A DNA stretch of 64,000 nt from Salvia splendens (taxonomy: Eukaryota > Streptophyta > Magnoliopsida > Lamiales > Lamiaceae). Made by a program: the position numbers and the translations under genes. The stretch lies in the NCBI RefSeq assembly GCF_004379255.2, contig NC_056049.1, forward strand, positions 10,462,063-10,526,062, written 5' to 3'. The notes under the pieces were generated by a model. That model was not told the origin of the DNA and did no database searches. It was given only the letters and a program-made list of their open reading frames with translations. This document shows, piece by piece, positions 36,458 through 63,175 of the stretch (position 1 is the stretch's first letter; every line of letters begins with the position of its first letter).

Positions 36458-38146
36458 AGATGATAGTTTTGGCTTATAAATTTTAGGTTTGCATCATAAA
36501 ATGATAGTTTTGCCGGATACAATGATATTCTGAGTTGATAGTTTTTGGTGTATAAAATGACATTTTTTTAATAAAATGATATTTTTACCTGATAAAATGA
36601 TAATCTAAGCGGATAAAATGACAGAAAGCTTATAAAAATGATAGTTTAGCTGGAGAAATTGCATATAAGCTAATAAAATGATACTTTAACGTGACAAAAT
36701 GACATAAAACTAATAAAATGATAGTTTTTGCCGGATAGAAAGATACTTTCAGCCGATAGAATGATAGTTTTGTCGGGTAGAATGATACTTTCAGCCGATA
36801 GAATGATAGGTATTTTTGGTGTATAAAATGACATTTTTGTTTAATAAAATGATACTTTTACCTGATAAAATGATAATCTAAGTGGTTAAAATGACAGTAA
36901 GCTTATAAAAATGATAGTTTAGTTAGGGAAATTGCATATAAGCTGATAAAATGATACTTTAACGTGACAAAATGACATAAAACTGATAAAATGATAGTTT
37001 TGCCGGATAGAATGATACTTTCAGCCGATAGAATGATAGTTTTGCTGGGTAGAATGATACTGTCAGCCGATAGAATGATAGGTATTTTTGGTGTATAAAA
37101 TGACATTTTTTTTTAATAAAATGATACTTTTACCTGATAAAATGATAATCTAAGTGGTTAATATGACAGTAAGCTTATAAAAATGATAGTTTAGCTGGAG
37201 AAATTGCATATAAGCTGATAAAATGATACTTTAACGTGACAAAATGACATAAAACTAATAAAATGATAGTTTTGCCGGATAGAATGATACTTTCAGCCGA
37301 TAGAATGATAGTTTTGCCGGGTAGAATGATACTTTCAGCCGATAGAATTATAAGTATTTTTATTGTATAAAATGACATTTTTGTTCAATAAAATGATACT
37401 TTTACCTGATAAAATGATAATCTAAGCGGATAAAATGACAGTAAGCTTATAAAAATGATAGTTTAGCTGGAGAAATTGCATATAAGCTGATAAAATGATA
37501 CTTTAACGTGACAAAATGACATAAAACTGATAGAATGATACTTTTGCCGGATAGAATGATACTTCCAGCCGATAGAATGATAGTTTTGTCGGGCAGAATG
37601 ATACTTTCAGCCGATAGAATGATAGGTATTTTTGGTGTATAAAATGACATTTTTGTTTAATAAAATGATACTTTTACCTGATAAAATGATAATCTAAGCG
37701 GATAAAATGACGGTAAGCTTATAAAAATGATAGTTTAGCTGGTGAAATTGCATATAAGCTGATAAAACGATACTTTAACGTGACAAAATGACATAAAACT
37801 GATAAAATGATAGTTTTGCCGGATAGAATGATACTTCCAGCCGATAGAATGATAGTTTTGCCGGGTAGAATGATACTTTCAGCCGATAGAATGATAGGTA
37901 TTTTTGGTGTATAAAATGACATTTTTTTAATAAAATGATACTTTTACCTGATAAAATGATAATCTAAGCGGATAAAATGACGATAAGCTTATAAAAATGA
38001 TAGTTTAGCTGGAGAAATTGCATATAAGCTGATAAAATGATACTTTAACGTGACAAAATGACATAAAACTGAAAAAATGATAGTTTTGCCGGATAGAATG
38101 ATACTTTCAGCCGATAGAATGATAGTTTTGCCGGGTAGAATGATAC
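36458..38146 (+). repeat. Intron 1 minisatellite, forward block
   Basis: Units of roughly 20-22 bp around ATAAAATGATA or ATAGAATGATA, with linkers such as GTTTTGCCGG, CTTTCAGCCG and CTTTAACGTGAC, form a higher-order repeat of 272 bp. Identical points recur at 36903, 37175, 37447 and 37719, exactly 272 apart. There is no coding role; minus-strand frames through it are an artefact of the repeat lacking stops. Confidence 0.9.
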
Positions 38147-38498
38147 AAAAATACCTATCATTCTATCGGCTGAAAGTATCATTCTACCCGGGATAACTAT
38201 CATTCTATCGGCTGAAAGTATCATTCTATCCGGAAAAACTATCATTTTATTAGTTTTATGTCATTTTGTCACGTTAAAGTATCATTTTATCAGCTTATAT
38301 GCAATTTCTCCAGCTAAACTATCATTTTTATAAGCTTACTGTCATTTTAACCGCATAGATTATCATTTTATCAGGTAAAAGTATCATTTTATTAAAAAAA
38401 ATATCATTTTATACACCAAAAATACCTATCATTCTATCGGCTGAAAGTATCATTCTACCCGGCAAAACTATCATTCTACCCGACAAAACTATCATTCC
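38147..38498 (-). repeat. Intron 1 minisatellite, inverted block
   Basis: The same units run in reverse from 38147 (AAAAATACCTATCATTCTAT) to the start of the virus copy. The switch point has almost no spacer, so it forms a long perfect-looking hairpin with the preceding block. Confidence 0.9.
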
Positions 38499-38542
38499 AA
38501 GTTTGATGATTCAAAGCTATCAAACGATAACCTGGTTGAAGA

Positions 38543-38556
38543 TGGTATCAGAGCCA
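38543..38556 (+). promoter_or_regulatory. tRNA-iMet primer-binding site, left copy
   Basis: TGGTATCAGAGCCA, the standard caulimovirid minus-strand primer site and the usual zero point of the circular map. The right copy is at 46348-46361. Confidence 0.9.
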
Positions 38557-38801
38557 TTTTAATGGCGGTAATGGATGTTATTAGACCTATAAATTCAACT
38601 GTCTTAATACTCGAGACTGAGATGATCAGATTATCCTTAGGAATAAACTTAGTCAAAGAAACGTTGGAATTCAGGTTTGGCAAGCTTGTAAGACGGTTGG
38701 TAAGCCTTAAGTTTAGGTGTTCCACGCATAGTGTTCCCCTGCGACCAGTTTCTTAGATCTAAACCAACTCCTAATCTTAATCTCTATCCCTCTTTTTGAG
38801 T

Positions 38802-40304
38802 ATGGCCAGTAAGTTTAGAAGTCTTTTAGGACCCAAAACCAAAAATAAAATGGATAAGAATATAGTTTTGAGTAATGAAACTTATGCTCCTATTAATTAT
38901 TCAAACCGGAGTATTCCTGAAGAAAAAGTAGAAAATTTCTATGACATAAGTCTGTTTGATTTCAGGATAGCTTTCTCCATTAGAACTCATGAAGAAACTA
39001 GGAGTATTTTGCAAAAATCTGAAAGTTTCCCTCTTCTCAAAGAAGAATCCATAAAAAGATATAGAGAACAAAAATATAGATTTGCCCATTTTGGGCTTGC
39101 TCAAGTTGCGGTTAAGCCTCTTGTTCATATAGGAGTTGATACCCCTATATATATTGTTCTTAGGGACAAAAGATTAAAAAATTACAAAACTTCTATACTA
39201 GCTATGGTTCAAACTAATATTTGTAATGACCCAATACACTTTAATTGCTCTCCAAATTTCTCTGTAGATCTGACAGATCCTATGATTCTTGAATCCCTTG
39301 TTCTTGATGTTCAAATACAGGGAGATGAGTTTCATCCCTGCAAAAATTTTGCTATCATGTTTAGAGTTTATCTTAGACTTATGTCGTCTAACTTAAATCC
39401 TAAATTTAGTAAAAATCCCTTTTCAAAAGGAGAAACTATCCTTTTACAAGTAGATGCTGAGCAACCCACAACTTATACCCCCAAACGTCTCAAATGGGAT
39501 GAAATGACCATTCCAAATCAATTTATCATAAAAGAACCTCAAGCCCCAAGGAATATTGAAAGAACAGAACCATCTCAAATAATTGAAGAACTAGATGGTA
39601 CTATAACTGTTAAATTTAATAGGACAAATTCTTTTTCAAATTTTAGAAATAATAGAAGTTTTAGTTATGAAAGTAGTAGAGCTTCCTGTTCTGATATGCC
39701 AAGCACGTCGGAAAGAAATTGGACTTTCAAAACTCCCATACCTCAACCAAATTTAACTGTCGAGGAAAATACAAGTGACCCTTACTCACCTACTAGAAGT
39801 ACTATGGTTATAACTTTTAATAAAGAATTCAAACCTGATATGGTTTATTTAAACAAAGAATTAAACAATCCTTGCTATAAAGAAAAAGAAAAATGGTTCA
39901 ATAAATTAAACATTAAAGTTAAAAATAAAATAAGAGATGAATGGATGAAAGAAATGATAAGAATTAAAACTAATTTCCTTTTCTATGATTTCATTGCTAT
40001 ATACCTATCTTCAGAAGGATGGCATGATTGTTTTAAAAAACCAACTATTGAAGTCGGCTCAAACCTTATGAGAAAATGGTGTTCCTTTGAAAATAATGAT
40101 ATTTTTACAGCGATTCATCCTCCTCTTCAATCCTTAAAAATACAAACTTCTAAAGGAGAAATTATTGCTGACCCTTTCAAACGAACTAAGGTAAATGACC
40201 CTGAAGAAAATAGAGAATTCCGAAAAATCATTCAACAAAATAATTATGCTAACCAGGCTCGTCATACTATTGCAAATCAATTAGATACTATTTTTTTCAA
40301 ATAA
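38802..40304 (+). pseudogene. Caulimovirid movement protein region
   Basis: About 500 codons from the ATG at 38802. The centre (residues about 40-230) has the pattern of the 30K movement protein superfamily, with alternating beta strands and LVLDVQIQGDEF containing the conserved Asp. Movement proteins modify plasmodesmata for cell-to-cell spread. The C-terminal third is Ser/Asn-rich. The frame stops at TAA 40302-40304 just after a run of seven T, and coding resumes in another frame, so the break is probably a one-base change in that run. Confidence 0.8.
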
Positions 40305-43300
40305 CCTCCCTGCTAGCAGACAAAGTATCCTTAATGATACTTCCAAACCTTTTTTCAAAAGTAATGAAATTCTAAAAAATAAGAATATTTCCTTTAATTC
40401 AAAAACTGAGAACATTCTTAAAAAACTCTCTGAAAACCTTGGCGAATCAAGTAAGCCAACTACAAATGTTATTCATGAAAGCCATGAGTCGAGTACTGAG
40501 CAATCAAGCTACTCTTCATCTGAAAAGGAAGATAATTTTGTTAAAAAATTAGAAGATGTTTTCAAAGAGTCTAATAACTCCCCTCTCAAAATAAATAAAA
40601 TCTTCAAAGGGAAAAAATTTAACAGCAGTAAACCTTATTATAATAGACCTTCGCCGGCAGACTTACTCTACGAAGAAAGAGGTCAATTTCATATATCCAG
40701 TTATGACGGAACTTCAATAACTGAATGGAATATTGATGGAAAACCTGAATATGAAATTCTCAATACCTTACAAGAAATGGGAATGGCAAAGATGGCGTAT
40801 AGATACGCAGGTATTTCTGAAAAAGAAGCTTGTGTCCTCCTTGTTAATGGCTTTACAGGTCAACTTAAAAATTGGTGGGATAACGCTTTAAGTTTGGAAA
40901 GCAAAGAAGAAATTCTTAATCATGTTGTTAATATTGAAGATCAAGATGGAGATATACAAGAAGCAAGCGATGCTTGTGACTTTCTTGTTGTCACCATTTC
41001 TATGTATTTCGTAGGAAATCCTAGGGAAGAGTATAATAGCTCTTCTATGGTTTTAAACAACCTTAGATGTCCTTCCTTATCTGATTACAGATGGTACAAA
41101 GATGTCTTTCTAACTCATGTCCTCAAAAGAAGTGATTGTAACCAAGCCTTCTGGAAAGAAAGATTCATAGCAGGATTACCTAAACTTTTTAGTGAAAGAA
41201 TAATATAAAAACTCAAAGATGATATTAAATCCGAAAACATCCCTTTCGAAAATATAACGTTTGGCCAATTATTTGCTTTTGTCAAAAAAGAAGGACTAGC
41301 CCTTTGTATGGAAATAAAAATACAGGACAAATATAGAAAAGACAAACAAAAGGAGAAAAATGAATTAGGATGTTTCTGTGAAATGTTCGGGATCGAAAAA
41401 ATTGAAGCTCCTTCTTCTAAGATCAAAAAGAAAACTCAAAAATTCAAAAAAGAATCACAAAGGCAAGATAATTATAAAACACCTCAAGGTAATTTTAGAA
41501 GAACAAAGCCTACAAGAAAATTTAAACCAGTTAATAATAAAGATAGAAATGAAATAAAATGTTGGTATTGCAAAAAATCGGGACACACTGAAGACCAGTG
41601 TTGGAAGAAAAAGAAGAAAAACATCAGGTTATTAAGTAAACAAATTAATAACATGTTAAGAGAAGAAAATAATTCCTCAAACTCTGGAAGTGAGTCAGAA
41701 ATTGAAGAAATTCAAAACATTTCTGAAAGTAGTAATTACCATAGTAGTGTTGAAAATGAAAAGGATATTTGCAAAATTTGCATCAATGCTATTTCTAAAG
41801 AAAATAAAGAGGCTATTCTTGATCCCGTCCACCAAATTCCTGACAATGAAACAAGGGATGAATATCTTAAGAAGTTAAAAGATTTAATTCTTGAGGAACC
41901 TTCTACTTCCAAAAAGATTAATATCAAGGAACAATTCAGTTTAAACAAACTATGGGATAAATATCCTTATCAAAGTATATCCAAACAAATAACGACAAAG
42001 GACCTCCAGAGCGAGATTAACAATCTTAAGAAACAAATTAATAAAGAATTTTATGAATTAAAAGAAAAGAATTTTGAGTTGGAAACAAGACTTTCGGTCA
42101 TTGAGAATAATGCAGAAGTAAATAATTGGGAAAATCAGGAACAAGATTCAGCAAATAACTCCTTAAAGGTCATCCAAGAGGTAATTTATCAAAAATGGCA
42201 TGTTAGCATAACTCTTGTTATAAATAATTTCAAAACTAATATTATGGCTTTGGTTGACTCAGGAGCTGATCATAACATAATCAGAGAAGGAATTGTTCCT
42301 ACTAAATATTGTGATAAAACCAAAGAAAAACTTTATACGGCCAATAATAACCCTTTAAGAATTAGATACAAACTCTCCAAAGCCCATATCTGTAATGAAG
42401 GATATTGTTTCAAAAATATTTTCACAATTGTTGAAGATATTACTTATAATATGATCCTAGAAACATCCTTCCTAACTCAAATCTATCCCTTCTATGTTGA
42501 TGATAATGACATCACTACCAATGTCCAAGGAAGAAAAATAAAATTTAAATTCATTTCTCCTATTCTAAAACAAGAAATCCTTAATCTTCAAAATAGCTCT
42601 ATTTTTAGACAAATCAATAACATAACCCAAAAACAAAAACAGATAAGCTATTTAAAAGAAGAAATTCCTTTCCAAAGGATTAAAGAGCAACTTGAAACTC
42701 TTAAAATTATTTCAAAAATTAAAGAAATAGAAGACAATTTTATCCAAAAGGTTTGTAATGAAGTGCCCAATGCTTTCTGGGAAAGAAAACATCATGTGAT
42801 TTATCTACCTTATGAAGAAGGTTTTCATGAAAGTACGATTCCTAGGAAATCAAGGCCCATTCAAATGAACCAAGAACTTCTTGAAGTTTGTAAGAAAGAA
42901 ATTAAAGACTTATTAGATAAAAAACTTATTAGGTCTTCAAATTCTCCATGGAGCTGTTCAGTTTTTTATGTTATGAAACAGGCAGAATTAGAAAGAGGAG
43001 CTCCCAGACTGGTTATTAATTACAAACCTCTCAATGCGGTATTACAATGGATTAGACATCCAATCCCGAATAAAAGAGACCTCATAAATAGACTTTATAG
43101 TTCCAAAATATTTTCCAAATTCGATCTTAAGTCAGGATTCTGGCAAATTCAAATTGCTGAGAAGGATAGATATAAGACAGCTTTCACAGTTCCCTTTGGA
43201 CATTATGAATGGAATGTAATGCCCTTTGGGTTAAAAAATGCCCCCTCTGAATTCCAAACGATCATGAATGACATTTTAAATCCATATAGTCAATTCTGCA

Positions 43301-43386
43301 TTGTCTACATTGATGATGTTCTCGTTTTTTCTCAAGATCTTGATCAGCACATAAGACATTTAGGAATTTTCCTAAAGACTATATAG
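40305..43386 (+). pseudogene. Caulimovirid coat protein, protease and RT region
   Basis: One frame with a stop at 41206-41208 in the coat region. The first 130 codons are Ser/Lys/Asn-rich, then a capsid-like helical part with WWDNAL. A CCHC zinc knuckle (CWYCKKSGHTEDQC) lies at 41560-41601. After a Lys/Glu-rich coiled stretch the aspartic protease has DSGADH (42256 onwards). The RT carries FDLKSGFWQI, PFGLKNAP and the active site YIDD at 43306-43317. It ends at TAG 43384-43386. These parts pack and copy the viral DNA. Confidence 0.88.
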
Positions 43387-44178
43387 AAAAATGGTTTAGT
43401 CCTCTCCACCCCAAAGATGAAACTCTTTCAAACCAATATTAGGTTCGTAGGTTACGAGATTGACAAAGGGACCTTTAGACCCATCAGCAGGTCTATTACC
43501 TTCACAGACAAATTTCCTGATGAAATTAAAGACAAAACCCAATTACAAAGGTTCTTAGGATGTTTGAACTACATCTCAGATTTCTTTCCCAACCTTAGAG
43601 AAACATGTAAACCTCTTTATCAAAGGCTTAAGAAAAACCCCTCAAATTGGACAGAAGAACATACTAATGTTGTCAAAACTATCAAACAACAAGTCAAGAC
43701 TCTTCCATGTCTTGGCATACCCAATCCAGAAGCCTTTATGATTATAGAAACAGACGCTTCAAACATTGGCTATGGAGGAATTTTAAAACAAAGATTAGGT
43801 TCAAAAGAAAATCTTGTCAGATACCATTCTGGTATCTGGAATAATGCACAAATAAATTATTCCGTTATTATGAAAGAAATCTTATCCATAGTTCTTTGCA
43901 TCCAAAAATTCCAAGATGACCTTTACAACAAAAAATTCTTAATAAGGATTGATTGCAAATCCGCAAAAGAAGTCCTTACCAAAGACGTCCAAAATATTGT
44001 TTCAAAACACATCTTTGCCAGATGGCAAGCCATTTTATCTGTATTTGATTTTGAAATTGAGTTTATTAGAGGAGAAAATAATTCTCTACCTGACTTTCTA
44101 ACTAGAGAATTTCTTCAAGGTCACAATGAAGAAATTCAAGAGCCTCTAGGACATCTAGGTCACAATGACAGACTCTAG
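43387..44178 (+). pseudogene. Caulimovirid RT thumb and RNase H region
   Basis: This continues the same frame after the TAG. It includes FVGYEIDKG and LQRFLGCLNYISDF, then RNase H with catalytic residues in IIETDAS (Asp), MKEILSI (Glu) and IRIDCKSAKEV (Asp). It ends at 44178, overlapping the next frame by 14 bp. Confidence 0.88.
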
Positions 44179-45334
44179 GACATCCAAGAGACAAAGTATC
44201 AAAGACTATGAAGTCTTCCCTTCAAAAGCCTTGGTCTCTTCCTCGACCCCAACAACTCCTCAAAAACCCAATCAAATTCTTTCTAACAGGTTTTCCCCTC
44301 TTCAAAACGCCCTCGAAATACCTTATAAAACCGCTCTTACCTCAAATATTCCGAAATCCACTAATATTCAAATACCAAACATGCCTGACCAGTTCAAATA
44401 CTTTCCTAAAGATTGGCGTGAAGATTGTGGGATGACTCCTTACTCTGAGTTTCCTGCCAAACCCTCTCAAATTGATTTCATAAGAAACCGGTTTCCAAAT
44501 ACTTCCCAATTCTGGGAATCGGATGATTGTTTAAAAGATCAGAAGTATTATGAGTTTATTTTAATTGACTCTGACTCAGTTGAAATAACTCATATTTACA
44601 ACAGATCCAAAGAAATTGAGTATTCCAAATGCATTATCAAAAGAGTCCTTACCACAACCACTTTTGGTGGCCTCAATGAGTTCAAAATTTTTAACCACCC
44701 AGCTCAAGGGTACAATTATATCGATTATAAGAATGCCTGGTTCAGAGCTTTCTTATTGAGATATTATAATCACTCTTGGTCCATAAGCTTTCATCATAAT
44801 TATGAAAAACAATTCCCTGTTTGGTTCCCCGATTGGTGGAGGAAAATGGAATCTTTAATCCAAATTCTCCCTTCTGATGTTCAACAATGGTTTCATACTT
44901 TTGCTGAATATTCTACTCTCAAAAATTTCCAGAAATTCATCATGTTCCATGCGGAATTCAAAGTCCCTTGGATCTTTTCCTGGGATTTCAATTTTGAAAA
45001 AATCTTTGCAGATCCTACTCCTTTCTCCTTGACAAGGGTCTATAAAGTTAAATGGTGGGCTAAGTTCCAAAATCATATTGGAGGTGAATCTGCTGTCAAA
45101 CAATTTTTTACCACTGGTGAAAAAGTGATTTTCGAAAAGGACAACAAAGAGAAAAGCAAGGCAGAAAGAACAAAGAAGGCCAGTACCTCGGAGCCAAATG
45201 ATTTTCTGAAAAACCTTCTAGAACATATCAAGAAAGACTGCTTTGAATTTATGGCCCAAAAGTCTGTCTCTTCAAAGTCTGAAGAATCGGTCTCTTCTGA
45301 TCCTATTGGGGGTCAAGACCCCTTTGATTTTTGA
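44165..45334 (+). CDS. Caulimovirid second large frame, function unknown
   Basis: An intact 389-codon frame from the ATG at 44165. The N-terminal 80 residues are Ser/Pro/Thr-rich. The centre is aromatic (DWREDCGM, YNYIDYKNAWFRAFLLRYY, WFPDWWRKME). The C-terminus is Lys/Glu- then Ser-rich. I see no zinc finger or catalytic motif. By position it could correspond to the transactivator/viroplasmin frame of other caulimovirids or to the unknown second frame of florendoviruses; neither is shown by sequence. It overlaps its neighbours at both ends. Confidence 0.75.
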   Translation: MTDSRTSKRQSIKDYEVFPSKALVSSSTPTTPQKPNQILSNRFSPLQNALEIPYKTALTSNIPKSTNIQIPNMPDQFKYFPKDWREDCGMTPYSEFPAKPSQIDFIRNRFPNTSQFWESDDCLKDQKYYEFILIDSDSVEITHIYNRSKEIEYSKCIIKRVLTTTTFGGLNEFKIFNHPAQGYNYIDYKNAWFRAFLLRYYNHSWSISFHHNYEKQFPVWFPDWWRKMESLIQILPSDVQQWFHTFAEYSTLKNFQKFIMFHAEFKVPWIFSWDFNFEKIFADPTPFSLTRVYKVKWWAKFQNHIGGESAVKQFFTTGEKVIFEKDNKEKSKAERTKKASTSEPNDFLKNLLEHIKKDCFEFMAQKSVSSKSEESVSSDPIGGQDPFDF

Positions 45335-45579
45335 TGACAGGTTTCTTTAAAAAGAAGAATACTGAAGCCTATTCTAGGTTTCTCATTGATAATATCAAGA
45401 TTGATACCGAAATGATTATCTCCCTTTCAGAGATTGCAAAGATTGTTCTTGAAGTACCTTCGGAAGAAGTGGATTTTCCATTTCTTAGAGAAACCATTGA
45501 TGACATTTTTCATAGAGTCAATAGAATCAAAAGAATGAAAAGAACTCTCAAAATTATCTCCATTATTACTGCAGCCTGA
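45331..45579 (+). CDS. Small caulimovirid frame A
   Basis: Eighty-two codons. The start overlaps the stop of the preceding frame in ATGA (45331-45334). The product is Lys/Ile/Glu-rich and probably mostly helical (DDIFHRVNRIKRMKRTLK). The tight overlap suggests coupled translation. No family is recognised. Confidence 0.55.
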   Translation: MMTGFFKKKNTEAYSRFLIDNIKIDTEMIISLSEIAKIVLEVPSEEVDFPFLRETIDDIFHRVNRIKRMKRTLKIISIITAA

Positions 45580-45582
45580 CCA

Positions 45583-45801
45583 ATGCATCCTTTTCAAATA
45601 TTCGATTTTAGATCAGAACTCAGATGGCTCCAGGCAGCAATTCTTAATGAAGAAAGATGTTTGGAAGAAATGTACAAATACCGAATGAGAAGAAGTCATC
45701 ATATGGATTTCTACCATAATAATGAAGAATGGAGACGTTGTCAATACATCAAGTATTGTAAAAACAAGATTCGGCGAATTAACATCATATTGGCTGCATG
45801 A
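45583..45801 (+). CDS. Small caulimovirid frame B
   Basis: Seventy-two codons, starting three bases after the preceding stop. The protein is basic and rich in Arg, Tyr and Trp (EMYKYRMRRSHH, KYCKNKIRRIN). Short basic last frames occur in several caulimovirids, but I do not recognise a family. It could be spurious, though the spacing argues for a real gene. Confidence 0.5.
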   Translation: MHPFQIFDFRSELRWLQAAILNEERCLEEMYKYRMRRSHHMDFYHNNEEWRRCQYIKYCKNKIRRINIILAA

Positions 45802-45899
45802 TTGCTTCATGAGCCACCTTCTTCAAAAGCTCTCTCCTCAAAAGTCAAGAATGACGGATACTCCAGAAGAAATCACCACGTAGCCACTCTTTTGTAAAT

Positions 45900-46130
45900 A
45901 ACTGTTTGTAATAGTTGTTCCACTATGTAAATTATTGTGTTTTACGTCACTGCTTACGTTTCTGTAAGATACTGTACTCCTATGTAGCCAGGGTTGTTGG
46001 CTATAAATAAGAGGTTTTCTAGGAAGAAAAGTACACCGGTTACTGATCTCAGAACCATTGCTCTTCTCCCTCCTTCCCTCTACTACCTCGAAGTTTTAAT
46101 CCAAAGTTAGTTTTCAAAATCTCTTTACTT
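45900..46130 (+). promoter_or_regulatory. Caulimovirid promoter and leader
   Basis: The TATA box is CTATAAATAA (46001-46010). Upstream, TTTTACGTCACTGCTTACG (about 45939-45957) resembles the paired ACGTCA sites (as-1 type) of pararetrovirus promoters. Pyrimidine-rich leader sequence follows, then the right primer site. In a circular genome this drives the genome-length RNA. Confidence 0.7.
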
Positions 46131-46303
46131 TCATTATGTTTTCTTTCATTATGCAAAATATTTTCAATATGTCTTTCATACTGTTTAATAACGGAATAAT
46201 TTATCATAACATTTTAATCACAAACCATACGGTTCTGACCAATACGTTATTACACAACAAGGCTTCTGCCAATACGTGTTCTAACAACAAGGTTTTAACC
46301 AAC

Positions 46304-46438
46304 AAGTTTGATGATTCAAAGCTATCAAAAGATAACCTAGTTGAAGATGGTATCAGAGCCATTTTAAGGGCGGTAATGGATGTTATTAGACCTATAAATT
46401 CAACTGTCTTAATACTCGAGACTGAGATGATCAGATTA
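46304..46438 (+). repeat. Terminal redundancy of the caulimovirid copy
   Basis: This is the direct repeat of 38499-38633 with a few differences (for example AAGG versus AATGG after the primer site). It includes the second primer site, TGGTATCAGAGCCA at 46348-46361. It shows that the integrated molecule was circularly permuted or concatemeric and not a truncated linear piece. Confidence 0.88.
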
Positions 46439-47620: not shown

Positions 47621-47623
47621 TAG

Positions 47624-48386: not shown

Positions 48387-48577
48387 GTATATTACTTTTG
48401 TTGCTAAAAGACCTAAAATGATACTTTTTGCTGATACAATGATACTTTTTGCTAATACAATTATATTTCAGTGGATACAATGATACGTTTTGCTGATAAA
48501 ATGATAGTCATAGCTGATAAACTGATACTTTTCTGTATGCATGAAAATATAACTCTGTTTTATGTTATGTTTTGAAG
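48387..48577 (+). other. Transposase intron 2 with repeat units
   Basis: A short intron with donor GTATAT and acceptor TTTTGAAG. It carries about six copies of AATGATACTTTTTGCTGATA-like units, the same family as the intron 1 minisatellite. The join keeps the frame (Thr-Asn-Arg-Tyr). Confidence 0.75.
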
Positions 48578-49589: not shown

Positions 49590-49684
49590 GTGTGCTCCAT
49601 TTTTAACCTTATTGTAAAAACTCTATTTTTTCAGTCAGAGAAATGATAGTATTTATTGTAATAATGTTATCTTTTACCTTGCAG

Positions 49685-50073: not shown

Positions 50074-50085
50074 AGCCATTTGATA

Positions 50086-50945: not shown

Positions 50946-51118
50946 AGGGCAAAATTTTCATTTCGTTTTCAAATTGGCGTGTCGATAGAAAACGTGAACT
51001 AGACGCTAAATTTAATTTCTCTGACACTCAAACCCTCCAATTCACTTCCAAACTCTCCGATCGCCTTCAAACCATAGTTTCTTCAGTTTCGAAGGTAAAT
51101 CCATCCAAATTCTGTAAT

Positions 51119-53666: not shown

Positions 53667-53835
53667 ACTATTGTAGAAAACTTCATTTAAATTCAGTAGC
53701 AAGTACTTATTGTACATTAATATCTTGTTTACTATTTAATTCACTGTTGTGTTGTATCTATTTACTTCACTGAATAAGGAACTAGTGTTTTGTGAACAAG
53801 AGTGAAGTAAAATACGAATAAGAGTGATGTGTTTT

Positions 53836-55126
53836 GCTTGATAAAATGATACTTTTACTGATTTGTAGGTATGTATAAAAGCGCGGGGGTAAATATGTAA
53901 TTTCCCTCATTTAATTTCTGAATTTCGCCAAACATCACTTAAAATGATAAAATGATATATGTTAGGTTTGTTGCATAGAATGATAGTTTTGCCGGATAGA
54001 ATGATACTCTGAGTTGATAAAATGATACTTTTGACTGACTGATAAAATGATAGGTTTATTGCATAGAATGATACTCTGAGTTGATAAAATGATACTTTTG
54101 ACTGACTGATAAAATGATAGGTTTATTGCATAGAATGATAGTTTTGCCGGATAGAATGATACTCTGAGTTGATAAAATGATACTTTTGACTGACTGATAA
54201 AATGATATATGTTAGGTTTATTGCATAGAATGATAGTTTTGCCGGATAGAATGATACTCTGAGTTGATAAAATGATACTTTTGATTGACTGATAAAATGA
54301 TATATGTTAGGTTAATTGCATAGAATGATAGTTTTTCCGGATAGAATGATACTCTGAGTTGATAAAATGATACTTTTAGCTTATAAATGTTAGGTTTACT
54401 GCATAAAGTGATAGTTTTGCTGGATAGAATGATACTTTCAGCCGATAGAATGATAGTTTTGCCGGGTGGAATGATACTTTCAGCCGATAGAATGATAGAT
54501 ATTTTTGTTGTATAAAATGACATTTTTGTTTAATAAAATGATACGTTTACCTGATAAAATGATAATCTAAGCGGATAAAATGACAGTAACCTTATAAAAA
54601 TGATACTCTGAGTTGATAAAATGATACGTTTACTGCTTTGTAGGTTTGTATATTATGTATTGTGCCGATTATATTAGGTTTATTGCATAGAATGATAGTT
54701 TTGCCCGATAGAATGATACTCTGAGTTGATAAAATGATACTTTTGCCGATAGAATGATACTCTGAGTTGACAAAATGATAGTTTTGCCGGATAGAATGAT
54801 ACTCTGAGTTTATAAAATGATAAATGTTACTCGCAGTAGATAAAATGATATTTCTATCCTATAAAATGACAAAATGATACTTACAGGCGATAAAATGATA
54901 CTTTAACCTGATAAAATGATAATATAAGCGGATAAAATGACAGCAATCTTATAAAATGATATAAGCTGAAGAAATGGTATTTTAGGTTTACTGTATAAAA
55001 TGATAGTTTTGACGGATAGAATGACACTCTGAGTTTATAAAATGATAAATGCTACTTGCAGAAGATAAAATCATATTTCTAACCTACAAAATGATAAAAT
55101 GATACTTGCAGCCGATAGAAATATAT
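53836..55126 (+). repeat. Minisatellite block between the Ulp1 genes
   Basis: ATAAAATGATA and ATAGAATGATA units, with a larger unit (ATACTCTGAGTTGATAAAATG ... TTTATTGCATAGAATG) repeated at about 60-110 bp. A decayed copy of the transposase intron 1/exon 2 junction (CTTTGTAGGTTTGTATATT) is at 54638-54657. The MULE end sequence is at 53877. Confidence 0.85.
53877..53937 (+). repeat. Internal copy of the MULE end sequence
   Basis: AAAAGCGCGGGGGTAAATAT followed by TTTCCCTCATTTAATTTCTG and AATTTCGCC match the inner part of the terminal repeats at 35908 and 62333, in the left-end orientation. It directly follows a splice-acceptor-like TGATTTGTAG. It is probably the left edge of a second, related MULE that starts here. 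Confidence 0.6.
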
Positions 55127-55322
55127 GAGGGCAAAATTGTCATTTCGTTTTCGAATTGGCGCGTCGATAGAAAACTGAACTAGACGCTAAATTTGATTTC
55201 TCTGACACTCAAACCCTTTGAATCGCTTCCAAACCCTCCGAATCGCTTCCAAACTCTCCGATCGCATTCAAACCGTAGTTTCTTCTGTTTCGAAGGTAAA
55301 TCCATCCAAATTCAGTAATATG

Positions 55323-57128
55323 ATGTCGAAAAACGCTCAAGCATCAACGAAGAAAGGTTGGATGAAGTTTTTTGCTTATTTTACTTTTGTTTTTGCTCGA
55401 TTTTATTATTTTGCCTGCGATTCTTCTTTTTTTTAGATTCAATAGTTTTTTAGTGTAGATTTAGAGTTACATATGACAGCATGATGAAATTACTTCGAAT
55501 TTACTTCATACCTTGTTCTATATCCTAACTCAGCGGTTTTTACATTCTAAATCAGTGGTTTATTCGAAGAAGTTTATCAGTGTCTATAGCAAATGTGTGA
55601 CTATAGCGGCAAAACTCATATTGATAAAGCAAATAGTTGAGATCCTTTAGTTTATCAGTATCTGCAGCCATATCCTAACCTCATGACCTTATTAAAATGC
55701 TTTGGTTTAAAAAAATGTATGCAGCAGTAATGCAGATTCGAAGAAGTTTATATGAGTACTGATTTTGTGAGTAGTGTTTTGTTCTAACCTCCTGACCTTA
55801 AGTGACAAGTTTTGCTCTCTCTCTTGTTTTGAAGTCATTGAAATTTAGGTGATAAAATGATAGTTTCAGAAGATAAAATTATATTTTCATAAAATGATAT
55901 TTTCAGGTGATAAAATGATAGTTTAATGTGATAAAATCATAGTTTCAGGTGCTAAAATGATACTTTGACTTTATATAATGACATAAATCGTTTAACACGC
56001 TGAAATCTTTTGTGTATTAGGAAACAACATTCCTGATGCTGTTGCTAATGATGATGTTACACTCTTAATGATGATTTCAGAAGGTAAAATGATAAATCTT
56101 TTGTGTATTAATGATAAATCTCTAAATTGAAAATGATAGTTTCAGGGGATAAAATTATAGTTGCACTTGATAAAATGATGGTTTCAGAGGATAAAATGAT
56201 GGTTTCAGGTGATAAAATGATAGTTCAGGGGATAAAATGATGGTTTCAGGTGATAAAATGATAGTTCAGGGGATAAAATGATAGGTTCAGTGATAAAATG
56301 ATACTTTTCAAATGATAAAATGATAGTTTCTGGGAATAAAATGATAGTTTCAGTTGGTAAAATAATAAACTTACTAGTTGCACTTGATAAAATTATAGTT
56401 GCACTTCATAAAATGATGGTTTCAGGGGATAAAATGATAGTTTCAGTGGATAAAATGATACTTTTACTTTATATAATGACATAAATCGTTTAACACACTG
56501 AAATCTTTTGTGTATTAGGAACAAACATTCCTGATGCTGGTGCTGATCATGATGATAGACAAGTAGTGATGGTTTCAGAAGGTAAAATGATAAATCTTTT
56601 GTTTATTAATGATAAATCTCTACATTGAAAATGATAGTTTCAGAAGGTAAAATGATAGTTGCACTTGATAAAATGATAGTTTCAGGGGATAAAATTATTG
56701 TTTCAGAGGATAAAATGACAGTTTCAGTGTGTAAAATGATAGGTTCAGTGATAAAATGATACTTTTGCATAAAATGATAGTTTCTTGGAATAAAATGATA
56801 GTTTCAGTAGGTAAAATGATAAACTTACTAGTTGCACTGGATAAAATGATAGTTTCCGGAGATAAAATAATAGTTTCTGGGGATAAAATGATACTTTGAC
56901 TTAATATAATGACATAAACCGTTTAACACACTGAAATCTTTTGTGTATTAGGTGATGCTGCTGCTGCTGATGATAGAATATTGGCTGATGAAATAGAAAG
57001 TATAAAAAATAACAAGAAAAGAAAGAATGATGATGCAAGTAAGAAGAAGGCAGCTGCAAAGAAGGGGAAGAAAATAGTTCTTCAAGATGATGCAGCCATT
57101 GACTCACCGACCTTGGCAGGAAGGAAGA
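55323..57128 (+). pseudogene. Ulp1-like gene copy 2, 5' exons
   Basis: The leader (55127-55320) and first exon (ATG near 55320-55323, then AQASTKK) match copy 1. After an intron full of minisatellite, an Asp/Lys-rich exon (about 56952-57120) encodes ADEIESIKNNKKRKN and KKKAAAKKGKK, a likely nuclear-localisation-type basic region. Its frame runs into a stop near 57140 while the next domain is in another frame, so there is a shift near 57125. Confidence 0.6.
55850..56930 (+). repeat. Minisatellite block with triplicated splice module, copy 2 intron
   Basis: Units here are mostly GATAAAATGATAGTTTCAGGG. Three copies of a module with TTTAACACRCTGAAATCTTT and TGTGTATTAG plus a GATGCTG-rich exon start lie at 55981, 56480 and 56911. 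The last one leads into the exon that is probably used. Confidence 0.85.
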
Positions 57129-57728
57129 AGGAATACTGACTTCTTCGTTAACATGCTCGATTCTCTAAACAAGAATCAAAGAAGAGCTGTTAGAGAGATT
57201 GGGTTTGGCGCACTCCTACACTTCAAAATAAGAAGTTTCCCTAGATCATTGGCTTATTATCTGATTTACAACTTTAACCATAATAGTTGTTCAATTAAAT
57301 TGAACAGCGGGGAATCACTATTTTTAGATGATGAAGATGTTCATATTACTCTTGGGTTCCCTATTGGACCTTCACTTATGAGTAGGAACAAATTTCAGAA
57401 AAATATCAACATTAAAAGTGAAATTGCTAGATTCTGTAAAGGTGGAGAAAAAAATATGGTTCCAGATTATGTTGTAGGACAGATGATGAAAGACGAAGAA
57501 GGTGGTGACTGGTTCAAATTGAATTTTATGATTCTGGTTGAGTATGCCTTGATCAACACCCCTGCTGATGGAAATTTGAGCCCACAAGTTTTTGATTACA
57601 TAGCTGATGTGAAGAAGATCAAAGAATACAATTGGTGTGGCTATGTCATATCCAAATTGCTTGAAACACAAAAGCGATGGAAAAATAACACAAGAAAGAT
57701 ATTTACCGGACCAGTCATCTTTGTAGTG
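57087..57728 (+). pseudogene. N-terminal domain exon of Ulp1-like copy 2
   Basis: It encodes FFVNMLDSLNKNQRRAV, GFGALLHFKIRSFPRSLAYY and LDDEDVHITLGFPIGP. This is the kind of N-terminal domain that precedes Ulp1 regions in plant transposon proteins (in the spirit of DUF1985 and plant mobile-domain proteins); I do not claim a specific family. It ends at donor GTAAGA (57729). It is absent from copy 1. Confidence 0.65.
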
Positions 57729-57802
57729 GTAAGAATATATTTTTTTTCCATTGTCTACGAATCTATTTACAGAAAAACTAATATTTAGTTTTAGTTAATG
57801 TA

Positions 57803-58612
57803 GGCCAGTTACGTCGACAGAATTGTGTTTCAAAAAAGAAATGGTGCCAAGATGCTATCCAACAGTTAAGGGTTGGACTGCCGAACTGCTGAAAGAAAGG
57901 CAAAGAGCAGAAATGAGTGCTTCAGAGTTTGGTCTCGGTCATAAGTATGACCGATATAAAAAGCAACAACATGAAGAGAACGATGAAGATGATGAATCTG
58001 AATCTGAAGATGATGTACCTGAAGATGTACAATCATTGGAGATGAAAGATCAGGACAAAGAGGGGACAACCAGTGGAAGTCAACAAAAGACTTTCATAGA
58101 TCAATGGAAGGAGGCTGCCAGTGAGTGTAAAGCCTCAATGTCGAAAATTCTTGATGTCCTTGAAGCAGCACCAAGTGAAATCAGGAATTTTAATAGCTTT
58201 AAGATTATCTGTGACACAACAAGAAATGCAATGGGAATCAGAGAGGAAGGTATGCAGAGTGTCACAGAAAGTCAGAAATCAATGTCAAATGCTATGAGCA
58301 ATGATGATATATTGATGATCCTGAATTTATCGATATCATGATTGAACTTACTAAAGTTGATGAGAGGACTTATATACTGAAAAATAGGGATGAGTTCTCT
58401 ACATTCACTCTGATACCCGAATATGAGCAGACTCCTGATGAGAATCCAAATTTTAATCGGGAAAAGGATATAGAGAAGGAAAAACTTCCAGAGAAGGAAA
58501 TGGTTAATAAAGCAGCTCAAGAAGAGAAGGAAAAAGTTCTAGAGAAAGAAGTTGAATTGTCTCTCAATGATGAATTTGAGGTCACTTTTAAAAATGATAG
58601 TTTAAGTACATA
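57803..58612 (+). pseudogene. Linker exons of Ulp1-like copy 2
   Basis: This starts after acceptor ATGTAG (57802) with ASYVDRIVFQKRN. A shift near 57845 moves to the frame with TVKGWTAELLKERQRAEM. An acidic stretch (EENDEDDESESEDD) and a helical part (ASMSKILDVLEAAPSEIRNF) follow; the latter corresponds loosely to the 51.5-kb exon of copy 1. A second shift near 58310 leads to a Lys/Glu-rich tail (EKEKLPEKEM) that runs into the minisatellite at 58590. Confidence 0.55.
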
Positions 58613-59060
58613 AAATGATTGTTTATATGGTTAAGATGATATAGGTTTGATGATGTTTTTTGGTTGCTCTGTTTTATTTGAAAAATAATACTTTTGCCTC
58701 ATAAAATGATAGTGTAAGGGGATAAAATGATAGTTTCAAATGATAAAATGATACTTTTGCATAAAATGATAGTTTCAGTGGGTAAAATGATAGGGTTCAT
58801 TGATAAAATGATAATTTTGCATCATAAAATGATAGTTTCAAATGATAAAATGATATTTTTGCATGAAATGATAAAATGATAGTTTCTTTGGAATAAAATG
58901 ATAGTTTCTGTGGGTAAAATGATAGGTTCAGTGATAAAATGAAATTTTTGTTTCATAATGATAGCTTTAGATTTTTGGCTGATAAAATGATAATATGAGT
59001 TCCATTGGGTAAAATAATATCCCTTATGTCAATAACAATTTATATTTTTGATTGAAAGGA
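58590..59060 (+). repeat. Minisatellite block, copy 2 intron
   Basis: About 15 units of the AAAATGATAGTTTCA type between coding blocks of the second Ulp1-like gene. The last 60 bp before 59060 are non-repetitive. Confidence 0.8.
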
Positions 59061-59352
59061 CGAAAGAGCATGTGCCATATTATCCACTGTCATGGAGGAT
59101 ATACATGGTGAAACCGGAGATGATGAAGGTTTAAAAGACAGAGAAGATGTTTTGAAAAAGGCCAAAGGGAAGAAGAAGGTTTCCCAAGAACCTGCAGTTG
59201 AAAAGGAGAAAGTGCCCAGAACAACAAAGAAAATTGTTGAAGCAATGTGCTCTCCCTACAATGTCAGGGCAGTAAATATAAAAGGAAAACTGAATAAAGA
59301 AGAGAAAAAATTATGTACTGGTTGATGACACATGAAGAAAACGAACTGTAAG
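59060..59352 (+). pseudogene. Basic linker exon of Ulp1-like copy 2
   Basis: It encodes MEDIHGETGDDEG, a Lys-rich stretch (KKAKGKKKVSQ) and CSPYNVRAVNIKGKL. One frame ends at TGA 59323-59325, but YWLMTHEENEL continues in another frame to the donor at about 59350, matching FLWIMTTYESNE of copy 1 before the protease. So one small shift near 59310 is present. Confidence 0.6.
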
Positions 59353-59415
59353 TTTTGAATTACATAATTATATTCTTATTAAATTCTTTTACCTAACATT
59401 AAATATGATTTTTAG

Positions 59416-60504
59416 ATCAGTTATGAGATGGTTTATGAGAACGACATGATCAGCATGTTCAAGATTGATTTCCACACCCTTGCTCCACGTACGTACGTCA
59501 GTATCAACATCATAGATGCATGGGCTGTGTACCTCAACTACAATGAAAAATTCAAATCAAATGCATCTCCGAGTCGTCTTTTCATCAACACCACACCTAC
59601 AGTACAGTAAACGGGTAAATAAGTAATAGCGTTACATTAAAAGTTAAATTTATTTACAAAAATGTAAACATGACAGGTATACAATATTGTTGCGAGGAAA
59701 CCTGATTGGACTCAAGCCGAGGCTCAGGAAAAATTATGCACAGCGTTAAATGAATTTGTTTCAAAGATTGAAGATTTCAAATGGGAAAATTATGACATGG
59801 TAAGTCATAATGAGATATACATTACAGAACAACGTACCTATATTTTTGAAAATGACATTTGTATATAATGTTTTGAAAATTAGATATTCTTTCCGATATG
59901 GGCGCACGATCATTTTTATATCATGTGCTTCAATCTCAAAATTCAAATGCTGGATGTGATTGACAATGCTCTGGTTACTGAAGAGGTGATAAAGCAGAAA
60001 TATGGAGGTGCACCAACTATTCTGTTATGTTTAGTTAAATGCATTCAATATCATTTAGTACCAAAACATAATATCATTTTTAATCAACCTCATGTATGTT
60101 TTGTGTTATTTGAATAGAAAAATTTCTTCCGAATTTATCTTGGAAATGGTGTTAATCCAACAATGGAGAGTATTGTCAAAACGTCAAAAATCAGACACAT
60201 GACTCTACCATGGCAGAACGATACAAATAAAGTTGGCTGTGGAGTTTATGTGATGCGCCACATGGAGACTTACATGGGTGGTCCAGTTCGTAACTGGAAT
60301 TCAGGTTTAGCGAAGAACGGGACAAAGGCTTTCATAAAACTTCGTGCCAAATATACTGAAACATTGCTTGTTGGAGAAACTAACAAGAAGGCTTTTGAGA
60401 CATTTTCAATGATACAGCAGAAGTTTCAGAATGATAGGAAAAAAGGGGAAATCAATGTTGAAAAGATGATTAGAGAATTTGAACCCCGTAAAGAGAGGTT
60501 GTAG
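59416..60504 (+). pseudogene. Ulp1 protease domain, copy 2
   Basis: Exons about 59416-59606, 59677-59799, 59884 to about 60032 and 60118-60504. The catalytic triad is kept: His in AHDHFYIMCF, Asp in LDVIDNA, Cys in VGCGVYVMRH. Both copies share INxIDAW/INAWASYLN and the C-terminal RAKY...LL pattern. The donor after the third exon (expected GT near 60033) reads TT, so splicing may fail. The domain is read directly; SUMO protease activity is inferred from the C48 family. Confidence 0.75.
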
Positions 60505-60532
60505 TTGTAATAGTAACTTGTAAGACATTTTG

Positions 60533-62150
60533 TCACGTTAAAGTATCATTTTATCAGCTTATATGGCATTTCTTCAGCTTATACATCATTTTATAAGGTT
60601 ACTGTCATTTTATCCGCTTAGAATATCATTTTATCAGGTTAAAGGGTCAGCTTATATAGTTTCAGGGGCTAAAATAATAGTTGCACTTGATAAAATATCA
60701 CTTTCATAAAATAAAATGATAGTTTCAGGGTATAAAATGATAGTTTGATGGGATAAAATGATAGTTTCACAAGGTAAAATGATAGTTAGATTTGATAAAA
60801 TTATAGTTGCACTTGATAAAATGATAATTTTAGCTTATACATTTTAGGTTTACTGCTTAAAATGATAGTTTTGCTTCATAGAATGATATTCAGAGTTGAT
60901 AAAATGATAATTTTGCAGATAGAATGATACTCTAAGTAGATAAAATGATACTTTTGGCTTATAAATGTTAGGTATAATGCATAAAATGATAGTTTTGCCG
61001 CATATAATGATACTCTGAGTTGATAAAATGATACTTTTGCCGATAAAATGATAGTCTGAGTTGATAAAATGATAGTTTTGCTTGATAGAATGATACTCTG
61101 AGTAGATAAAATGATACTTTTGGCGATAAAATGATAGTTTTGTCGGATAGAATTATACTTTCAGCCGATAGAATGATAGGTATTTTTGGTGTATAAAATA
61201 ACATTTTTATTTAATAAAATGATACTTTTACCTGATAAAATGACAGTAACCTTATAAAAATTATACTCTAAGTTGATAAAATGATACGTTTACTGCTTTG
61301 TAGGTTTGTATATTATGTATTGTGCCGATTATATTACGTTTATTGCATAGAATGATAGTTTTGCCGACAGAATGATACTCTAAGTAGATAAAATGATACT
61401 TTTGGCTTATAAATGTTAGGTTTAATGCATAAAATGATAGTTTTGCCCCATAGAATGATACTCTGAGTTGATAAAATGATACTTTTGCCGATAAAATGAT
61501 AGTCTGAGTTGATAAAATGATAGTTTTGCTTGATAGAATGATACTCTGAGTAGATAAAATGATACTTTTGGCGATAAAATGATAGTTTTTCCGGATAGAA
61601 TGATACTTTCAGCCGATAGAATGATAGTTTTGCCGGGTAGAATGATACTTTCAGCCGATAGAATGATAGGTATTTTTGGTGTATAAAATGACATTTTTGT
61701 TTAATAAAATGATACTTTTACCTGATAAAATGATAATCTAAGCGGATAAAATGACAGTAACCTTATAAAAATGATAGTTTAGCTGAAGAAATTGCATATA
61801 AGCTGATAAAATGATACTTTAACGTGACAAAATGACATAAAACTAATAAAATGATAGTTTTGCCGGGTAGAATGATACTTTTAGCCGATAGAATGATAGG
61901 TATTTTTTGTGTATAAAATGACATATTTGTTTAATAAAATGATACTTTACCTGATAAAATGATAATCTAAGCGGATAAAATGACACTAAATGATACTCTG
62001 AGTTGATAAAATGATACGTTTACTACTTTGTGATAAAATGATAGGTTTATTTCCTAGAATGATAGTTTTGCCGGATAGAATGATACTCTGAGTTGATAAA
62101 ATGATACTTTTGACTGACTGATAAAATGATAAAATGAGCGAAATTCAGAA
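60533..62150. repeat. Right sub-terminal minisatellite block
   Basis: The first 120 bp are inverted relative to the rest, then come forward units, including at least one stretch close to the 272-bp higher-order repeat (61560-61860). A decayed intron 1/exon 2 junction (TTTGTAGGTTTGTATATTAT) is at about 61299-61318. The block runs up to the right terminal repeat. Confidence 0.85.
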
Positions 62151-62333
62151 ATTAAATGAGCGAAATTTGGATACGTAAATTTTATCATAGCAAAATGACA
62201 TATTTACCCCCGCGCTTTTTTTTATGAAGTAAATCTAAGTTTGAATCTAGACCACGTGATTTTAAAAATGTGTGGTCCAGATTTAGTTATAGGGTTATTA
62301 CGAAAATTGGGGTTATCATTATAATGCACCCCC
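62145..62333 (-). repeat. Right terminal inverted repeat of the MULE
   Basis: Read on the minus strand from 62333 it starts GGGGGTGCATTATAATGATA, then AACCCTATAACTAAATCTGG, and includes CGCGGGGGTAAATATGTCAT. It is the inverted partner of 35908-36042. A TA tract follows directly, so any duplication is unreadable. Confidence 0.7.
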
Positions 62334-62346
62334 ATATATATATATA

Positions 62347-63175
62347 TAGGAAGATGATCATATGATAACCCCTAATTTGTGTGATAACCCTATAACCAAA
62401 TCTGGACCACACATATTTTCTAATCATGTGGTTCAAATTCAAACTTAGCTTTCCTTCATAAAAAAGGCGCAGAGGGTAAATATGTCATTTCCCTCATTTA
62501 ATTTCTGAATTTCGCTCGTGATAAAATGATAAAATGATACTCACAGGAGATAAAATGATACTTCTGACCTATAAAATGATACTCGCAGCAGATAAAATGA
62601 TGAAATGATAAAATGATACTCACAGCAGATATAATGATACTCTTGACCTATAAAATGATAAAATGATACTCGCAGCAGATAAAATGATACTTCAGACCTA
62701 TAAAATGACAAAATTATACTTGCAACAGATAAAATGTTACTTCTGACTGATAAAATGATAATCTTAGGTGATTATCATCCGATGGTGGTGTAAGTCAATT
62801 AAATTGAAAAGTCAATTTTGTAAGTCAAGCGTCGGAGACGTGTATTCATCCGAAATTACCAACTAATAGGAGAAAGTAGAAGTAGTTCATAAAGCAAAAA
62901 GCTAAGAGAGACCAGAAATCAACCTTGCTTCTAAAATCAACAGAAAGTGTATGAGCAACACCCAATGGTCTAAACAGTGGATTCCTAGTAATCCAAGATG
63001 AGGAATCTGTTGTTTCGGGCTGTGCAAAAATCGCAGCCTCAACCAGCTGCCTTTCTCTCAAGACAAGGAGCTCATAGTTTTGTTAGATTAAATCTAGACC
63101 ACATATTTTAAAAATGTGTGGTGGAGATTCAGTTATAGGGTTATCACATAAATATGGGTTATCATTATAACGCAC

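What the first reader, a model, noticed from the sequence alone, without database searches (positions are those of the whole stretch)
36458..62770. One iteron-like repeat family colonises every noncoding part of the MULE
Units around ATAAAATGATA/ATAGAATGATA occur in intron 1, intron 2 (48412-48535), the spacers at 50.1 and 53.8 kb, introns of both Ulp1-like genes (52.6, 55.9 and 58.6 kb), the right sub-terminal zone (60.5-62.1 kb) and the small MULE (62.5-62.8 kb). They are missing from the conserved exons. The spacing of about 20-22 bp equals two helical turns, so proteins could bind on one face. Possibilities are a binding array for the FAR1-domain transposase, a promoter of recombination and spread, or a passive satellite. 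This looks like a system in which a transposon carries and scatters its own satellite.
Basis: partly seen in the sequence, partly recalled or inferred. Interest (0 to 1): 0.85.

Follow-up and report, generated by a model that had tools for sequence, protein, structure and literature searches.

The report
Transposon studded with protein-docking-like repeats
A sage-like plant's jumping gene carries hundreds of copies of a short DNA word in its non-coding parts, a pattern that resembles a known trick by which some plant transposons let their own protein dock on them and undo silencing, here in a differently built transposon.

Summary
The repeats are real. ATARAATGATA occurs 202 times on + and 14 on -, all inside the reported interval; simulated sequence gives about 0.15. 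Commonest spacing is 21 bp. Units fill introns, spacers and the right end of a Salvia-like MULE and a small neighbour, hardly ever exons; but 12 of 22 non-coding stretches, mostly short, hold none. The 11-bp core varies less than the linker in 8 of 9 regions (reverse-anchored control), fitting a bound site better than a passive satellite. Beside its FAR1/MULE transposase the element has a gene whose best Pfam match is DUF1985 (sub-threshold), with a weak C48/Ulp1 match at its end. That is the layout of the VANDAL/VANC anti-silencing system and its Ulp1-bearing (KIU) form, whose encoded protein binds motif arrays in its own transposon's non-coding DNA (PMC5735166, PMC13317346). Best reading: docking arrays of a VANC/KIU-like protein in a TIR-bearing, FAR1-type MULE. 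Binding and demethylation are untested, this copy looks broken, and genome-wide enrichment could not be tested because the genome search did not complete.

The parts
35895..36046 (+). left terminal inverted repeat; the outermost roughly 20 bp of the right TIR have no counterpart in the alignment
   Evidence: alignment to 62155-62313: 133 matches, 12 mismatches, 21 gap columns; score 155 against a maximum of 41 in 200 random pairs
36276..38511 (+). transposase intron 1, left part: motif array, 56 cores on + and 12 on - (inverted piece 38150-38511), 272-bp higher-order unit
   Evidence: the exon 1/intron boundary is my model
38512..46440 (+). caulimovirid-like insertion inside the array (boundaries approximate); not part of the motif system
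   Evidence: RVT_1 and viral MP Pfam matches on two separate short pieces; one 1-mismatch core
46441..47616 (+). transposase intron 1, right part: 38 cores, 272-bp higher-order unit
47617..48386 (+). transposase exon 2 with FAR1 DNA-binding domain; no units
   Evidence: PF03101 E 4e-12 on 47617-48411; ten named Salvia homologues, 46-93% identical; boundary checked (one base shorter than used)
48387..48577 (+). transposase intron 2, 5 cores
48578..49531 (+). transposase exon 3, MULE domain; frame ends early compared with P0021
   Evidence: PF10551 E 3.5e-17 on 48576-49529; P0021
50073..51118 (+). spacer array, 32 cores
51119..53666 (+). gene 1, C48/Ulp1-like, with stops in the predicted second exon; an intron array on - (5 cores, 52.5-52.8 kb) adjoins an inverted copy of a gene-2 intron/exon block
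   Evidence: PF02902 E 0.0022, below gathering, on a joined translation with an assumed last join; inverted copy 93.75% over 96 columns
53667..55319 (+). spacer array, 50 cores, with an internal TIR-like piece at 53875-53928
55320..60504 (+). gene 2 (predicted): DUF1985-like exon 56952-57728, C48-like end 60118-60504; its non-coding stretches hold arrays (6, 15, 12 and 14-15 cores); frame-broken in this copy
   Evidence: PF09331 best match, E 0.12 for 57090-57728 and 0.0039-0.07 for four relatives; PF02902 E 0.053; models; counts
60505..62136 (+). right subterminal array, 57 cores on + and 4 on - (inverted copy of an intron-1-type segment)
62155..62313 (-). right terminal inverted repeat, aligned part; TA run at 62335-62348 outside it
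62362..63165 (+). small neighbouring element with TIRs like those of the big one (62362-62445 / 63085-63165; 68 matches, 13 mismatches) and a 14-core array at 62517-62761

Best explanation
The arrays are docking sites for an anti-silencing protein encoded by the transposon itself, as in the VANDAL/VANC system. The likely binder is the DUF1985-like protein of gene 2, with a C48/Ulp1-like end; relatives without this break exist, the window's copy is broken. It would recognise the 11-bp core ATARAATGATA, gain affinity and element specificity from many cores about 21 bp apart, and remove silencing marks from the non-coding DNA so that transposase and gene 2 are expressed. Arrays grow by tandem duplication and are copied between introns, spacers and ends as larger blocks. 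The small neighbour shares TIR and array, as a target in trans would. Shown here: array, core-linker contrast, gene content at the stated strength, TIRs, block copying. Inferred: binding, demethylation, trans action.
For: Non-coding arrays, 288 + against 21 - hits, in introns, spacers and the right end, as described for VANC21 targets (PMC5735166). Core constraint: in middle units not required to match, 8 of 9 regions show lower pairwise difference in core than in linker; pooled column test p 9e-4 on 46 distinct units; with exact flanking cores, mean information 1.59 bits per core column against 0.93 per linker column in 33 units outside the higher-order arrays. Anchored on 13 linkers instead (105 places), cores mismatch at 4.7% of positions; linkers after 202 exact cores mismatch the nearest of those 13 at 17.6%. 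40% of linker differences are transitions, so deamination alone is a poor account. DUF1985 (PF09331), a domain shown for VANC, is the best Pfam match in 5 of 5 sequences and 2 of 4. Gene 2 has a weak C48 match at its end, compare Ulp1-carrying VANC genes (KIU; PMC13317346). An S. splendens gene model, P0021, joins a transposase end to the start of the DUF1985-like gene, three small-exon variants included, so the association is not private to this window. Block copying.
Against: All DUF1985 matches are below Pfam's gathering score (12.2-17.6 against 35.1 bits); a first scan of the longer piece 57078-57788 listed none at E 0.1; P0021 gave no DUF1985 match and P0022 matched PMD. C48 matches are below threshold too. 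In gene-2 intron 2 the core varies more than the linker (0.318 against 0.220, 5 distinct units), and in intron 3 the difference is small (0.152 against 0.233, 3 units). In one search linkers outside the 13 listed types count as mismatches, which widens the contrast. Units share ancestry, so p is not a strict probability. VANDALs have degenerate TIRs, this element clear ones. The unit is no more like the VANC21 or VANC6 motifs than shuffles are (7 of 9 and 6 of 8; 836 and 882 of 2000 shuffles reach it). No binding or methylation data; structure models unusable (mean pLDDT 52.4 and 42.6).
Confidence: 0.58

Rival explanations
1. Passive satellite: a 21-bp unit arose by slippage in an intron and spread through the element's tolerant non-coding DNA by unequal exchange and block duplication, with no binder.
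For: Tandem and higher-order structure; block and inverted copying with flanking non-array DNA; 15 of 82 distinct linkers occur in more than one region, the six commonest among them (the two sides of the viral insert count as two regions there); near absence from coding models. Gene-2 intron 2 shows no core constraint.
Against: Core less variable than linker in 8 of 9 regions and in the reverse-anchored control.
Confidence: 0.24
2. Binding array for the FAR1-domain MULE transposase, an extended version of the subterminal tandem repeats of other MULEs.
For: The transposase has a FAR1 domain; 10 of 12 long-TIR MULE families of Aedes have 9-15 bp subterminal tandem repeats (PMC5225508); one array here is subterminal on the right.
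Against: Most arrays are internal or intronic and the left subterminal 353 bp have none. The host FAR1/FHY3 site CACGCGC has no exact copy in the element; of six 6-of-7 matches two lie in TIR sequence (62209, 53881), one in an array (50230) and three elsewhere, so the TIR is at least as likely a FAR1 site.
Confidence: 0.11
3. The repeats act in RNA: splicing or polyadenylation signals, or a source of small RNAs.
For: Many arrays are in predicted introns and two predicted gene-2 introns begin with GTAAAATGATA, a core variant; the inverted piece at 38.15 kb could form hairpins with its neighbours.
Against: Arrays also fill the spacers between genes and the small neighbour, and the gene-1 intron array has the opposite orientation. 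No Rfam match in the window at gathering level. No RNA data were available.
Confidence: 0.07

Closest known systems
VANDAL21/VANC21 and VANDAL6/VANC6 anti-silencing systems, Arabidopsis (PMC5735166; part 1 of the text, sections 8 and 10, and passages seen)
   Same: MULE; short-motif tandem arrays, mainly one orientation, in introns, intergenic and terminal non-coding DNA; element-encoded DUF1985-type gene; tandem changes of exon/intron structure in that gene
   Different: motif unrelated; clear TIRs here; FAR1-domain transposase here; DUF1985 match only sub-threshold; binding and demethylation not shown here
Ulp1-carrying VANC genes (KIU) / Kaonashi MULEs (passages of review PMC13317346; Hoen 2006 and Sasaki 2022 known only through it)
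   Same: DUF1985-like and Ulp1/C48-like parts in one MULE gene (both weak matches here); motifs in the element's own non-coding DNA; said to be conserved in eudicots
   Different: described as non-TIR MULEs; this one has TIRs and a second C48-like gene
Aedes Muta1-type MULEs with subterminal tandem repeats (PMC5225508, passages)
   Same: long TIRs and short tandem repeats; non-autonomous relatives share the ends
   Different: their repeats are described as subterminal; here mainly internal and intronic
MuTAnT / AutoMuTAnT, Medicago (PMC4486113, passages)
   Same: MULE with a Jittery-like transposase and ends in TA microsatellites
   Different: no internal motif arrays in the passages seen; different TIR

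Membership tests
VANDAL/VANC (incl. Ulp1-carrying KIU) anti-silencing MULE | encodes a MULE transposase | tested here: met
   PF03101 and PF10551 above cut-off
VANDAL/VANC (incl. Ulp1-carrying KIU) anti-silencing MULE | encodes a DUF1985 protein | tested here: inconclusive
   best Pfam match in 7 of 9 sequences scanned, all below gathering score; P0020 not scanned
VANDAL/VANC (incl. Ulp1-carrying KIU) anti-silencing MULE | Ulp1/C48 domain in that gene (KIU form) | tested here: inconclusive
   PF02902 E 0.0022 (gene 1) and 0.053 (gene 2), both below gathering
VANDAL/VANC (incl. Ulp1-carrying KIU) anti-silencing MULE | dense, mainly same-orientation short-motif arrays in non-coding parts, rare in exons | tested here: met
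VANDAL/VANC (incl. Ulp1-carrying KIU) anti-silencing MULE | degenerate or absent TIRs (commonly seen in VANDALs, PMC10398659) | tested here: not met
   133 of 145 aligned positions identical between the ends, 21 gap columns
VANDAL/VANC (incl. Ulp1-carrying KIU) anti-silencing MULE | encoded protein binds the motif and removes DNA methylation | not testable with these tools
   needs protein, EMSA/ChIP and bisulfite data
VANDAL/VANC (incl. Ulp1-carrying KIU) anti-silencing MULE | motif enriched in this TE family and rare elsewhere in the genome | not tested
   The genome search 'own' did not answer; within the window no exact copy lies outside 36458-62770
TIR-type Mutator-like element | long TIRs flanked by a short target-site duplication (length recalled as about 8-11 bp) | tested here: inconclusive
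   TIRs found; the left outer end was not found and the other ends lie at TA runs, so no duplication could be read
MULE with subterminal repeats bound by transposase | repeats confined to subterminal zones | tested here: not met
   most units internal; none in the left subterminal 353 bp

The most novel reading that the evidence does not exclude
A VANC-like, self-encoded anti-silencing system operates in a TIR-bearing, FAR1-type MULE lineage of Salvia, with a new target word (ATARAATGATA) displayed in hundreds of copies, and small TIR relatives carry the same word so as to be unsilenced in trans. This would separate VANC-type anti-silencing from TIR loss and from the VANDAL element lineage.
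Probability: 0.4. Interest if true: 0.68.

Novelty: new variant of a known kind. Interest (0 to 1): 0.55.

Why it matters
Degenerate TIRs and VANC-related genes are noted as commonly occurring together in VANDALs, and TIR loss is discussed as escape from RdDM, with the causal link untested (PMC10398659, passage). A VANC/KIU-like gene with self-carried motif arrays in a MULE with good TIRs would loosen that link and offer another target word for testing how such a protein recognises its array. The core-linker contrast predicts the binding site from sequence alone.

Tried and rejected
Structure of the DUF1985-like domain: two models with mean pLDDT 52.4 and 42.6; no fold search made. PDB by sequence: P0016 none up to E 10; the joined gene-1 translation only a designed repeat protein (7obi_A, E 0.002, no single stretch better than 3.5), dismissed. 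Resemblance to the VANC21 and VANC6 motifs: no better than shuffles. Rfam at gathering level: none. Control scans for two cores 21 bp apart: 2 stretches in viral contigs and 6 in genome contigs; three of the eight were read: L002 and L005 look like unrelated local tandem repeats, L001 shows two cores; five were not read.

Papers seen: PMC5735166 (part 1 of 6 of the text, sections 8 and 10, passages); passages only of PMC10398659, PMC13317346, PMC12859917, PMC6446971, PMC2528002, PMC12312487, PMC4486113, PMC5225508 and PMC13306707. PMC3773815 (Fu 2013) and 10.15252/embj.2021110070 (Sasaki 2022) are not held. No paper on such a system in Salvia or Lamiaceae stood among the rows shown in the paper searches that could have met one (15 of 37; 10 of 331; 10 of 156; 8 of 5535). 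The lists were cut and the eudicot paper could not be read, so this is no claim that none is in print.

Mended on checking: the regions with core below linker are 8 of 9, and the empty non-coding stretches 12 of 22.
Full report
What is there. Of 15 protein matches to transposase exon 2, ten are named Salvia proteins (46-93% identical), two Ipomoea, and three bear no organism, the best match (P0001, 91%) among them; so the window probably comes from Salvia or near kin (inference). A MULE spans about 35.9-62.33 kb: its inverted ends at 35895-36046 and 62155-62313 align with 133 matches, 12 mismatches and 21 gap columns. It encodes a FAR1/MULE-domain transposase (47617-48386 and 48578-49531) and two further genes on the same strand. 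A small element with similar TIRs follows at 62362-63165, next to a TA run. A TIR-like piece inside at 53875-53928 suggests that the big element is composite.

The repeats. ATARAATGATA occurs exactly 202 times on + and 14 on -, all between 36.46 and 62.77 kb; 20 Markov simulations gave at most 1 on +. With one mismatch allowed the big element holds 288 + and 21 - hits: 286 and 21 are non-coding under my gene models, one + hit is in a coding model and one in the viral insert. Of 301 successive spacings 175 are exactly 21 bp. Density is about 26-37 per kb in nine of the listed arrays, and lower in gene-2 intron 1 (9.0), the gene-1 intron (13.9) and the small element (16.6). Of 22 non-coding stretches between coding models, 12 (1776 bp in all) have no unit, so 'every noncoding part' overstates it. 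Transposase intron 1 has a 272-bp higher-order unit and is interrupted by a caulimovirid-like insert with reverse transcriptase and movement protein domains.

How the arrays spread. The commonest linkers recur in intron 1, the spacers and the right end (15 of 82 distinct linkers in more than one region, the six commonest among them). Blocks carry their neighbours along: a 91-bp stretch at 54600-54690 is 96.7% identical to 61260-61350; the start of transposase exon 2, with the array before it, recurs at 50574-50681. A gene-2 intron/exon block is present inverted in a gene-1 intron, 93.75% identical, adjoining the - strand units there; the other two - strand clusters, at 38.15-38.51 and 60.52-60.66 kb, are inverted copies of intron-1-type segments. 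The 5' parts of genes 1 and 2 are 88% identical over 376 columns, yet intron 1 of gene 1 has no units and that of gene 2 has six, so arrays come or go within a gene pair.

Is the core constrained? I took the unit between two cores 42 bp apart, which was not itself required to match. In 8 of 9 regions distinct units differ less in the core than in the linker (for example 0.110 against 0.446 in the right zone). Gene-2 intron 2 goes the other way (0.318 against 0.220, five units), and intron 3 is weak (0.152 against 0.233, three units). Pooled over 46 distinct units outside transposase intron 1 the column test gives p 9e-4; with exact flanking cores the mean information is 1.59 bits per core column against 0.93 per linker column in 33 units outside the higher-order arrays. 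Anchored the other way, on 13 exact linkers (105 places), cores mismatch at 4.7% of positions, while linkers after 202 exact cores mismatch the nearest of those 13 at 17.6%; linkers outside the 13 types widen that gap. 40% of linker differences are transitions, so deamination of linker cytosines alone is a poor account. Units share ancestry, so the p value is not a strict probability.

The candidate binder. The piece 57090-57728 of gene 2 has DUF1985 as its only Pfam match up to E 10 (E 0.12); in four relatives it is the best match (E 0.0039-0.07) and so in two Saponaria proteins (E 0.19 and 0.0049); P0021 had no DUF1985 match and P0022 matched the plant mobile domain. A scan of the longer piece at E 0.1 had listed nothing. 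All are below the gathering score. Gene 2 ends in a C48-like stretch (E 0.053), and gene 1 has one at E 0.0022 on a joined translation; histidine, aspartate and cysteine of the C48 triad seem to be present (motif recalled; read by eye). An S. splendens model, P0021, fuses a transposase C-terminus with the gene-2 start, including three successive variants of the small exon also predicted in the window; that the two lie side by side there is inferred from this gene model. P0002 and P0019 list the same S. divinorum contig length, consistent with linkage, not proof. In this window gene 2 is frame-broken relative to P0016 and P0021, gene 1 has stops in its predicted second exon, and the transposase frame ends early relative to P0021, so this copy is probably not autonomous.

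Comparison with what is known. In Arabidopsis VANC21 binds YAGTATTAY, arrayed at high density in one orientation in introns, intergenic and terminal non-coding regions of VANDAL21, and causes loss of methylation; VANC6 acts through other motifs; [quoted passage not shown] A 2026 review states that some VANC genes carry Ulp1 (KIU), recognise motifs in their own kind, and that the Ulp1 part is strongly conserved in eudicots (PMC13317346, citing Sasaki 2022, which I could not read). The Salvia-like element has this layout. It differs in clear TIRs (VANDAL TIRs are degenerate), in a FAR1-domain transposase, and in an unrelated motif. In anatomy it works like a VANC system; membership is not established, because the DUF1985 and C48 matches are sub-threshold, one common VANDAL feature is not met, and binding is untested.

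Against the transposase rival: host FAR1/FHY3 proteins recognise CACGCGC, which has no exact copy in the element. Of six 6-of-7 matches two lie in TIR sequence (62209, 53881), one in an array (50230) and three elsewhere (53454, 55159, 62514). The left subterminal 353 bp contain no units. What this transposase binds is not known.

What could not be done.

Noticed in passing
c. 38512-46440: Caulimovirid-like integrated sequence (movement protein and reverse transcriptase domains) inside the transposase intron-1 array, with a similar stretch of about 130 bp near both ends and interrupted frames (read by eye); described only.
   Followed up: partly
38150-38511: Inverted copy of the 272-bp array unit directly beside the viral insert, 93-95% identical to upright copies; may mark a rearrangement at integration.
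   Followed up: partly
56021-56952: A small gene-2 exon appears in three successive variants separated by array-bearing introns; S. splendens P0021 encodes three such variants too.
   Followed up: partly
56084 and 56582: Two predicted gene-2 introns begin with GTAAAATGATA, a variant of the repeat core, so the array unit may supply a 5' splice site.
   Followed up: no
35345-35779: Another tandem repeat (periods of about 50, 71, 102 and 141 bp) just left of the MULE, apparently unrelated to the core.
   Followed up: no
62335-62348 and 63179-63222: TA runs stand next to both ends of the small element, as for TA-microsatellite-targeting MULEs such as MuTAnT.
   Followed up: partly
L002 5881-6123: An IMG/VR contig stretch with a 21-bp AT-rich tandem repeat that contains the core, apparently by convergence.
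   Followed up: no
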